Position numbers and translations under genes: made by a program. Shown here piece by piece: positions 30,005 to 44,799 of a DNA stretch of 44,799 nt. The stretch is from Alphaproteobacteria bacterium (GTDB taxonomy: Bacteria > Pseudomonadota > Alphaproteobacteria > Micropepsales > Micropepsaceae): positions 1 to 44,799 of the forward strand of contig JAEUMK010000046.1 in the NCBI GenBank assembly GCA_016792565.1. Direction: 5' to 3'. Position 1 is the first letter of the stretch, and the number at the start of each line of letters is the position of its first letter. Below the pieces are notes generated by a model. The model was given only the letters and a program-made list of their open reading frames with translations, had not been told where the DNA came from and searched no databases.

Positions 30005-30050
30005 CCTTCCCCCATCGGGGGAAGGTGCCCCGAAGGGGCGGAAGGGGGCC
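30005..30050. repeat. REP-like double hairpin, copy A
   Basis: Stem 1 is CCTTCCCCC (30005-30013) with GGGGGAAGG (30017-30025). Stem 2 is GCCCC-GAA-GGGGC (30027-30039). The trailing sequence GGAAGGGGGCC is shared with copy B at 43882-43927. It lies 8 bp past the gmk stop codon on the minus strand and may stabilise or terminate that transcript. Confidence 0.85.
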
Positions 30051-39055: not shown

Positions 39056-39077
39056 CGCCCCAGCTCAAACGGTCCTC

Positions 39078-42501: not shown

Positions 42502-42576
42502 CTGCGACCCTCTGCCCCGTTGCCCCGTTCTGGCTATACTGATGGCCTACGAGCATCGTCCCTGGGAGAGATCATC

Positions 42577-43506
42577 ATGACGCACCTGACCCGGCTGCTG
42601 AGCGCCGCCCTCGCCATCGCCGCCGCGCCGGCGGCCCTTGCCGGCCAGGCCTGTCCGAACGACGCGATCTCCGTCACCGGCACGGCCGAGGCGCCCTTCG
42701 CCTGCACCTGCGCGCCGGGCGTCAACGCCTCGGGCTGGGTCTACGGCACCGACCGCTACACCGCCGATTCCGCGATCTGCACCTCGGCCGTGCATGCGGG
42801 CGTCATCCAGGCCGGGCCTGGCGGCGACGTGACGCTCTACACCGGCGAGGGCTGCGGTTCGTTCGTCTCGACGACGAGGAACGGCATCACCTCCGCCTCG
42901 TGGGGCAGCTACGGCGCGACCTTCGCCTTCGTGACGCCGCTCCCGGCCTGCGCGACGGCCGCCGCCGCGACGCCCGCCCCGACCGCGACCCCCGCGCCGG
43001 GCGCGACCCCGGCCGCCACCCCGCCGGCCGGCGGCGCCGCCGACGGCCCCGCCGCCTGGCAGGCGCGCGGCGACAAATACGCCGCCGTCCTGCCCGAGCC
43101 CCTGCCCGGCTGGGAGGCGACCAAGGCCGAAGGCTTCTGGGAGAACTCGGCGATGACCCAGAAGATCGTCGAGGGACACCGCACCTACAAGAAGGGCGGC
43201 GGCATGCAGTCCGACGTCTTCGTCGCCATCTTCAACAACCCCGACGGCACGCCGCACGAGCGCACCGAGCTTCTGTGGAACGACGAGGCCGCCCGCACCG
43301 CCGACGGCTGCACGATGGGCGAGGCGGCGGGACGCAAGGCGATGACCTGCGACCGCAGCGGCGACATCCGCGTCGTCTTCCGCATGGAGAGCGGGCTTTT
43401 CGCCTCCGTCGGCATCCTCGGCTCGCACGACACGACCCGCGAGGACATCGACGCCTACGTCGCCAAGCTCGACTTCCCGGCGATCGAGAAGCTGCCGATG
43501 CAGTAA
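42577..43506 (+). CDS. Secreted LCCL-domain protein
   Basis: A 309-residue exported protein. It has a signal peptide (1-22, ending AALA) and an LCCL domain (about 26-127). Recognisable LCCL features are GWVYGTDRYTADSAICTSAV followed by HAGVI and GGDVTLYTGEG, with four cysteines in the usual spacing. An Ala/Pro/Thr linker (about 128-152) leads to a C-terminal domain (about 155-309) that I do not recognise; it has LPEPLPGWEATKAEGFW and two cysteines. LCCL is best known from animal extracellular proteins and is uncommon in bacteria. GGGAG lies about 9 nt before the ATG. Confidence 0.85.
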   Translation: MTHLTRLLSAALAIAAAPAALAGQACPNDAISVTGTAEAPFACTCAPGVNASGWVYGTDRYTADSAICTSAVHAGVIQAGPGGDVTLYTGEGCGSFVSTTRNGITSASWGSYGATFAFVTPLPACATAAAATPAPTATPAPGATPAATPPAGGAADGPAAWQARGDKYAAVLPEPLPGWEATKAEGFWENSAMTQKIVEGHRTYKKGGGMQSDVFVAIFNNPDGTPHERTELLWNDEAARTADGCTMGEAAGRKAMTCDRSGDIRVVFRMESGLFASVGILGSHDTTREDIDAYVAKLDFPAIEKLPMQ

Positions 43507-43545
43507 CCGGGCCTCGCCACCGCGCCAGGACGGCCCGACACCCGG

Positions 43546-43788
43546 GCCGTCCTGATCCCCGGAGGCCCGGCCCCACCTCCGCCGTCCTCACCCTGAGGAG
43601 CCCGGCCCGGCCTCAGCCATCCTCTTCCCGGGAGGCCCGGTCCCACCTCCGCCATCCTCATCCTGAGGAGCCCGGCCCGGCCTCCGCCGTCCTCATCCTG
43701 AGGAGCCCGGCCCGGCCTCAGCCATCCTCATCCTGAGGAGCCCGGCCGCGCCACGCGGCCGGGCGTCTCGAAGGACGCACCGCGCCCG
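43546..43788. repeat. 35-bp-period tandem array with hairpin end
   Basis: Five consecutive 35-bp units begin at 43546, 43581, 43616, 43651 and 43686. A sixth at 43721 runs into a complete REP-like end with arms CCCGGCCGCG and CGCGGCCGGG (43741-43763) and the tail CTCGAAGGACGCACCGCGCC (43768-43787). Units fall into two types, one with TCCTGAGGAGCCCGGCCCGG and one with a GGAGGCCCGG variant core, in the order B-A-B-A-A-A. Confidence 0.92.
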
Positions 43789-43800
43789 CAACCGCCGACC

Positions 43801-43850
43801 CTTCTCCCCTCCGGGGAGAAGTCCCCTGCGGCACGCAGGGGGATGAGGGG
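43801..43850. repeat. Double-hairpin repeat
   Basis: Stem 1 is CTTCTCCCC-TCC-GGGGAGAAG (43801-43821). Stem 2 is CCCCTGCG-GCA-CGCAGGGG (43823-43841). It ends GATGAGGGG. It resembles palindromic repeats found widely in alphaproteobacterial genomes. Confidence 0.85.
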
Positions 43851-43872: not shown

Positions 43873-43927
43873 CCCCCTTCCCCTTCCCCCATCGGGGGAA
43901 GGTGTCGCGAAGCGACGGAAGGGGGCC
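43873..43927. repeat. REP-like double hairpin, copy B (three-way fold)
   Basis: The outer arms CCCCCTTCC (43873-43881) and GGAAGGGGG (43917-43925) enclose hairpin CCTTCCCCC-ATC-GGGGGAAGG (43882-43902) and hairpin GTCGC-GAA-GCGAC (43904-43916). It lies 23 bp past the methyltransferase stop on the minus strand. Confidence 0.88.
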
Positions 43928-43950: not shown

Positions 43951-44799
43951 TCAGGCCTTCGTCCGCTTCGTCTTCTTCGCCGGCGCAGCCGCCGCCTCGG
44001 CCGCCGCGCGGCTCTGGTTCAGCGCGAACAGCCGCTCCAGCACCTCTTCGTCGGAAAGGTCGCGCGGCCAGCCATAGGCATCGGCCACCGCGTCATCCAG
44101 CGCGGTGTGCGCCATCGCCAGCCAGGCCGGCCGCTCGTTGTAGAGATTGGTCAGCGTCCGCTTCTTCAGGATTTTCGCCGCCGCCTCGTCCTTCGGCAGG
44201 ATGCGGTCGGGATAGCCCGGCACGACCTCCGGCACGCGCACCGTCAGGTCCGGCGGATCGAGCCACGCCTCGCGCAGCGCGTTCAGCTTTTCCGCCGCCG
44301 CGGCGATGGCGACGGCCCGCGGATCGGCGGCATAGTCCGCCGCCGGAATATTCGGCGTCAGCCCCTCGGGGAAGGGGAAGGTCTCGAAGGTAGTGGAGGG
44401 CGTGTAGCGGGGACGATCTTCGAGACTGGTTCCCAGCCGCAGCGACCAGAGTTCGTGGAAGCGCGAATGCAGGATGCCAAAGGTGGCGTCGTCGTCGCGA
44501 GCGATGGCGTATATCGATCCGGTGGGGAGAATAGCCGGCGGAAAGAAGACAAATAGCCTATGCTTAGAGACTTCTGGCGTTGCGACGTATCTGGACATCC
44601 CTTCTAGAGATCGCCAGAGATCACCGCGCGACCGTTGATGTGCCCACCAAGGAACATGAGGCTCACCAGCCCTAAGAAGACGCTTCTTACTCGCTGCGCG
44701 CCGCTGGTTTTCGGTTTGAATTGCTGCACGAGCGACCGCGAACGGCCCCTCAAACAAGGCGGCCTCCTGCTCGGATTGCTGACTTGTGAGATCGACTAC
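43951..44799 (-). CDS. MmeI-like DNA methyltransferase, C-terminal part
   Basis: The frame is open to the window edge, so 282 C-terminal residues are visible and the start lies beyond 44799. The TTG at 44757 is an internal codon, not a start. RYVATPEVSKHRLFVFFPP, then IAIARDDDATFGILHSRFHE-like sequence, WSLRLGTSLEDRPRYTPSTT and FETFPFPEGLTP match the target-recognition and following region of large class I DNA methyltransferases of the MmeI/type IIL kind. The catalytic NPPY region and any nuclease domain would lie outside. The C-terminus is Lys-rich (AKKTKRTKA). Bases after about 44400 are clearly lower in GC than the rest of the window, suggesting transfer. Confidence 0.85.
   Translation of the reverse strand, partial: VVDLTSQQSEQEAALFEGPFAVARAAIQTENQRRAASKKRLLRAGEPHVPWWAHQRSRGDLWRSLEGMSRYVATPEVSKHRLFVFFPPAILPTGSIYAIARDDDATFGILHSRFHELWSLRLGTSLEDRPRYTPSTTFETFPFPEGLTPNIPAADYAADPRAVAIAAAAEKLNALREAWLDPPDLTVRVPEVVPGYPDRILPKDEAAAKILKKRTLTNLYNERPAWLAMAHTALDDAVADAYGWPRDLSDEEVLERLFALNQSRAAAEAAAAPAKKTKRTKA

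What the first reader, a model, noticed from the sequence alone, without database searches (positions are those of the whole stretch)
43873..43927. REP-like copy folds into a three-way junction and covaries with copy A
Copies at 30005-30050 and 43882-43927 are identical except in the second hairpin. There GCCCC/GGGGC becomes GTCGC/GCGAC, so two base pairs changed on both arms and pairing is kept. Copy B also has outer arms that enclose both hairpins with one unpaired base. Compensatory change suggests selection on structure, in RNA or as a cruciform recognised by a protein.
Basis: partly seen in the sequence, partly recalled or inferred. Interest (0 to 1): 0.62.

Follow-up and report, generated by a model that had tools for sequence, protein, structure and literature searches.

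The report
BoxC-type triplex repeat with hairpin loop

Summary
In detail: copies at 30005-30048 and 43882-43925 are identical except in hairpin 2, which carries two fully compensatory pair changes. Copy B also has a 9-bp outer arm. With 88 distinct aligned copies the hairpin-2 covariation is strong. The three-way junction is not a family trait: 1 of 127 distinct copies has the outer arm. There is no RAYT-type (Y1) transposase in any of the five genus genomes, which carry 4-38 copies.

The conserved 3' arm (R') has another partner. It is the mirror, not the complement, of hairpin 1's purine arm. When a hairpin-1 pair changes, the facing R' base changes too: G with C-G, A or T with T-A. That is the code of an antiparallel purine-motif triplex. 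The rule holds for hairpins collected without regard to R' from many alphaproteobacterial families (triplet 3 p = 1e-21, triplet 6 p = 1e-10).

Most likely it is a class II intrastrand-triplex repeat (BoxC/PIT/TM-ECO type) whose usual 3-nt second loop is replaced by a variable hairpin, which published searches (loops up to 6 or 10 nt) would miss. It behaves like a mobile, often inverted-paired repeat. Triplex formation and function in cells are inferred, not shown.

The parts
43882..43890 (+). Copy B, pyrimidine arm Y (CCTTCCCCC), 5' arm of hairpin 1
   Evidence: Read directly; pairs with 43894-43902
43894..43902 (+). Copy B, purine arm R (GGGGGAAGG), 3' arm of hairpin 1
43904..43916 (+). Copy B, hairpin 2 (GTCGC-GAA-GCGAC): variable hairpin that replaces the short second loop of BoxC-type triplex motifs
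   Evidence: Covariation
43917..43925 (+). Copy B, third-strand arm R' (GGAAGGGGG), exact mirror of R
   Evidence: Mirror covariation
43873..43881 (+). Copy B only: extra 5' arm CCCCCTTCC, Watson-Crick complement of R'; reads as a short TTCCCC tandem duplication; makes the three-way junction
   Evidence: Folds; 1 of 127 copies
30005..30013 (+). Copy A, Y arm
30017..30025 (+). Copy A, R arm
30027..30039 (+). Copy A, hairpin 2 (GCCCC-GAA-GGGGC)
30040..30048 (+). Copy A, R' arm (GGAAGGGGG); element lies about 10 nt past the gmk stop codon
   Evidence: site without the element in G002 and G004
43800..43850 (+). Third element, GATGAG subfamily: Y CCTTCTCCCC 43800-43809, R GGGGAGAAG 43813-43821, hairpin 2 CCCCTGC-GGCAC-GCAGGGG 43823-43841, R' GATGAGGGG 43842-43850 (T facing a T-A pair)
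   Evidence: Sequence; model match; DNA fold

Best explanation
It is a dispersed, non-autonomous DNA repeat with the anatomy of a class II (purine-motif) intrastrand triplex: 5' pyrimidine arm Y, short loop, purine arm R, variable GC-rich hairpin, second purine arm R'. Shown: Y pairs with R, hairpin 2 is kept paired by compensatory changes, and R' is the mirror of R and covaries with the Y-R pairs position by position under the triplex code (G facing C-G, A or T facing T-A). Inferred: when the strand is single (replication, repair or element mobilisation), Y-R fold as a hairpin and R' folds back across hairpin 2 to lie antiparallel in the major groove. Inferred: the structure is kept because it is what is recognised or tolerated when the repeat is copied, as for structured single-strand mobile repeats, using an enzyme supplied in trans that is not a Y1/RAYT protein. 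Copy B's outer arm is a private change that adds a competing Watson-Crick partner for R'.
For: Hairpin 2 covariation. Third strand in the genus: mutual information between hairpin-1 pairs and R' bases is concentrated at matching positions (1-1 0.60 bits, 4-4 0.51 bits, most other entries under 0.1). Class-wide, with R' located by an anchor that ignores positions 3, 4 and 6: triplet 3 T-A to A 39, T-A to G 7, C-G to A 0, C-G to G 57 (p = 1.4e-21); triplet 6 78/2/8/15 (p = 1.4e-10); triplet 4 (always T-A) faces T 81 or A 18 of 105. Of 49 CCTTC hairpins, 41 have a downstream mirror of R at 8/9 or better, against 11 direct copies and 5 for shuffled R. In one subfamily the closing pair is T-A with R' starting in A; in another the stem and R' are both one T-A/A shorter. 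Y-R hairpins greatly exceed the reversed-pattern control: 136 v 0, 273 v 6, 74 v 2. Mobility: insertion at gmk 3' in G000, none in G002 or G004, a different repeat in G003; 65 of 141 copies have a neighbour within 200 bp, inverted in 32 of 35 neighbour pairs. Purine-motif triplexes do not form in RNA (stated in PMC4666352), so third-strand covariation points to DNA.
Against: No structure was measured. For E. [quoted passage not shown] Some copies break the rule: C-G facing A 8 of 23 at triplet 6, mostly in one genome; T-A facing G 7 of 48 at triplet 3. Within a genome the third-strand changes are few and shared by subfamilies, so counts of copies overstate independent events. The mobilising enzyme is unknown.
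Confidence: 0.66

Rival explanations
1. Only the Watson-Crick folds matter: an RNA or cruciform with two hairpins (three-way junction in copy B), acting as an mRNA stabiliser, terminator or protein site.
For: Both hairpins covary. Copies favour gene 3' ends: 24 convergent, 32 codirectional, 4 divergent; nearest gene end is 3' in 43 and 5' in 17.
Against: Does not explain why R' is conserved and covaries with hairpin 1. In codirectional sites the orientation is 17 sense, 15 antisense. The outer arm exists in 1 of 127 copies, and class-wide in 4 of 105 against 2 for shuffles.
Confidence: 0.12
2. A protein (for example the unknown mobilising enzyme) reads R and R' as two mirror-arranged purine tracts flanking hairpin 2, without a triplex.
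For: R' conservation and mirror symmetry would also follow from a paired recognition site.
Against: Proteins normally read direct or dyad repeats; T replaces A facing T-A at triplet 4 in 81 of 105 copies, which the triplex code permits and simple mirror recognition does not predict.
Confidence: 0.11
3. The covariation of R' is only subfamily history: a few ancestral sequences copied many times.
For: Changes cluster by subfamily.
Against: The rule recurs at four positions (1, 3, 4, 6) and in genomes of many different families; no C-G pair at triplet 3 faces A in 57 cases. Mirror repeats are not made by simple copying.
Confidence: 0.07
4. A G-quadruplex formed by the G runs of R and R'.
For: R and R' are G-rich; TM-ECO's CD spectrum alone resembles a quadruplex (PMC4666352).
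Against: Subfamily II (GGGGGAAGA ... AGAAGGGGG) lacks the short GG runs but keeps the mirror; the Y arm and the A/T positions covary, which a quadruplex does not need. NMR of TM-ECO showed 18 imino signals, not 3-4.
Confidence: 0.04

Closest known systems
BoxC / PIT / TM-ECO class II intrastrand triplex motif of E. coli (PMC4666352; Hoyne et al. 2000 as cited there)
   Same: Same order Y-loop-R-loop-R', 9-10 nt arms, purine-motif code, T or A facing T-A, intergenic, many copies, inverted pairs. L064 (CCCTCGCCCC ATC GGGGAGAGGG [hairpin] GGGTGAGGGG) matches the E. coli arms almost letter for letter. The 36-nt motif is present in 4559 of 5426 E. coli genomes.
   Different: Second loop is a variable, covarying hairpin (about 10-40 nt) rather than 3 nt; other arm sequences (TTCCCCC, TCCCCC, TTCTCCCC). 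Published searches used loops of 1-6 or 0-10 nt and so would miss it. Both loop types occur in Alphaproteobacteria.
REP elements, GTAG and CGTC superfamilies (PMC3733652)
   Same: Short GC-rich palindromic repeats at gene 3' ends, often inverted pairs; CGTC repeats also lack a dedicated transposase.
   Different: No GTAG or CGTC tag, two different hairpins plus a third arm, longer (about 45 nt).
Rhizobial RIME and A/B/C palindromes (mentioned in PMC2573895)
   Same: Intergenic palindromic repeats of Alphaproteobacteria with conserved secondary structure.

Membership tests
Class II intrastrand triplex motif (BoxC/PIT/TM) | 5' pyrimidine arm, purine arm, reverse-Hoogsteen purine arm in that order on one strand | tested here: met
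   Copies A and B, 9/9 triplets each; family
Class II intrastrand triplex motif (BoxC/PIT/TM) | Third-strand code G facing C-G, A/T facing T-A | tested here: met
Class II intrastrand triplex motif (BoxC/PIT/TM) | Loops of 1-6 nt (Holder) or 0-10 nt (Hoyne), the limits of the published searches | tested here: not met
   Second loop is a hairpin of more than 10 nt in all three window copies; hence a variant, not a plain member
Class II intrastrand triplex motif (BoxC/PIT/TM) | Forms a triplex as an isolated strand (CD/NMR) | not testable with these tools
   Shown for TM-ECO in PMC4666352, not for this element
REP (GTAG type) mobilised by RAYT | Unpaired GTAG tag at one foot | tested here: not met
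   No such shared tag in the copies printed
REP (GTAG type) mobilised by RAYT | Y1 transposase gene (PF01797) in the genome | tested here: not met
   0 of 5 genus genomes, which hold 4-38 copies; control genomes ring
CGTC REP | CGTC tag, 8-9 bp stem beginning AT, CCA tail | tested here: not met
   Absent from the element; a CGTC-like pair sits in the same gmk slot of G003
Known structured RNA family | Match at an Rfam gathering score | tested here: not met
   0 matches in the window

The most novel reading that the evidence does not exclude
Intrastrand DNA triplexes are under selection in living bacteria. Alphaproteobacteria carry large populations of mobile repeats whose third strand coevolves with its target duplex, and whose second loop is a variable hairpin that acts as a clamp or recognition tag for an unidentified mobilising enzyme.
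Probability: 0.35. Interest if true: 0.75.

Novelty: new variant of a known kind. Interest (0 to 1): 0.55.

Why it matters
Whether intrastrand triplexes form in cells or do anything there is open: footprinting in E. [quoted passage not shown] Here comparative data give an evolutionary footprint of a third strand in many genomes, with natural variants that supply matched and mismatched test sequences. The hairpin-loop variant also widens the known range of these motifs and offers a structured repeat without a Y1 transposase, so another way of spreading has to be found.

Tried and rejected
RAYT/Y1 transposase in the genome and its relatives: none in the genus. Rfam: nothing above threshold, and weak hits look like chance. 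Outer Watson-Crick stem as family trait: rejected. G-quadruplex: disfavoured by subfamily II. Sense-strand RNA terminator: no orientation bias. Direct repeat of R instead of mirror: 11 against 41 of 49. Plasmid records: no match. Text search of papers for the arm sequences returned unrelated primers and telomere papers.

Full report
What was checked. The two copies are real and read as stated. Copy B's coordinates resolve into CCCCCTTCC 43873-43881, CCTTCCCCC 43882-43890, GGGGGAAGG 43894-43902, T43903, GTCGC-GAA-GCGAC 43904-43916 and GGAAGGGGG 43917-43925. Copy B folds into the three-way junction as RNA or DNA, on either strand. Copy A has only the two hairpins; its RNA minimum-energy fold is a different one.

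Collecting copies. The window is contig 73 of a 3.07-Mb, 114-contig assembly. A covariance model (R1) found 43 matches at E up to 1 in the own genome, some of them opposite-strand readings of the same palindrome, and 4 to 38 in the other four genomes of the genus; 25 of 39 good-quality genomes in a sample of 61 had matches. From these, 141 non-overlapping copies were read and 127 distinct ones parsed.

Second hairpin. All four modelled hairpin-2 pairs have changes on both sides, for example column pair 68/137: 39 C-G, 20 G-C, 15 U-A. 97.8% of all cells pair, and 0 of 500 shuffles reach the covariation score; slid controls fall to 0.11 or less against 0.27. Swapping 3' halves between copies drops fully paired hairpins from 101 of 111 to 34%.

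The third arm. In copy B GGAAGGGGG pairs with an upstream arm, but that arm is found in 1 of 127 copies. Across subfamilies the arm is the mirror of hairpin 1's 3' arm: I GGGGGAAGG/GGAAGGGGG; II GGGGGAAGA/AGAAGGGGG; III GGGGGAGG/GGAGGGGG; IV GGGGGAAG/GAAGGGGG; V GGGGAGGG/GGGAGGGG; and GGGAGAAGG/GGATGAGGG, where T replaces A facing a T-A pair. Two copies with an inverted closing pair (G-C) have T there (L062, L065); from general knowledge, T is an accepted third base at such inversions. Mutual information between hairpin-1 pairs and R' bases sits on the diagonal.

An unbiased sample. Model R1 includes R', so hairpins were also collected by hairpin-1 pattern alone in 115 class genomes, giving 146 distinct places. 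A downstream GG..G.GGG anchor, blind to positions 3, 4 and 6, was found in at least one orientation for 126 of 146, against 7% per shuffled flank. At triplets 3 and 6 the third base follows the pair (p = 1.4e-21 and 1.4e-10). The sampled genomes come from different families, and per genome the C-G groups at triplet 3 all show G. The p-values treat copies as independent and are therefore too small; the recurrence across families is the stronger point.

Relation to known systems. Holder et al. (PMC4666352) define class II motifs and the TM-ECO consensus CCCTCNCCC N3-6 GGGNGAGGG N3 GGGNGAGGG, with NMR evidence for a triplex in vitro, no DMS support in vivo, and a search limited to loops of 1-6 nt. 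In the alphaproteobacterial sample both forms occur: three-base loops such as TTA and TCA (54 of 127 rows) and longer, mostly hairpin, loops. The present element is the hairpin-loop form. It is not a GTAG or CGTC REP (PMC3733652) and has no Y1 transposase partner.

Spread and setting. At the gmk 3' site, G000 has copy A, G002 and G004 have no such insert, and G003 has a CGTC-like REP pair. That fits insertion of a discrete unit, although loss cannot be excluded. Of 141 copies, 65 lie within 200 bp of another, and 32 of 35 neighbour pairs are inverted. By a crude ORF caller most copies are intergenic and avoid divergent (promoter) regions, with no strand bias relative to transcription. This suits a DNA element tolerated at gene ends.

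What is shown and what is not. Shown: the anatomy, hairpin covariation, mirror covariation of the third arm, absence of Y1 transposases in the genus, and presence/absence at one site. Inferred: that the triplex forms, that it does so on single strands, that an enzyme recognises it, and that the repeats move.

Noticed in passing
window 43504-43783: Six copies of a 35-bp tandem repeat built on CCTCATCCTGAGGAG, ending in a fuller palindromic element (...GTCTCGAAGGACG); single copy also at 39075. Related palindromes sit beside several triplex repeats elsewhere (L009, L010, L013).
   Followed up: partly
window 43951-44799: C-terminal part of an MmeI-like type IIG restriction-methylation protein, cut by the contig end; copy B lies just past its stop codon.
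   Followed up: partly
L344 about 1380-1470: The gmk 3' slot of G003 holds a pair of CGTC-like REPs (TGTCATTCCCGC...GGGAATCCA) instead of the triplex repeat: different repeats use the same intergenic slot.
   Followed up: partly
L101, L103, L105, L107, L109 and other G001 loci: Subfamily in which the first loop too is a long hairpin (AGCGCGCC...GGCGCGCG), so both loops of the triplex carry hairpins.
   Followed up: no
L062:1106-1166, L065:1591-1654: Closing pair inverted to G-C with T in the third arm, a possible natural case of T facing a C-G inversion.
   Followed up: no
G000 contigs C73, C81, C10, C78, C114, C1, C85: Several copies lie within about 1 kb of contig ends, so the assembly probably breaks at these repeats and copy numbers are underestimates.
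   Followed up: no
window 42520-43506: LCCL-domain protein on the left side of copy B's convergent intergenic region.
   Followed up: no
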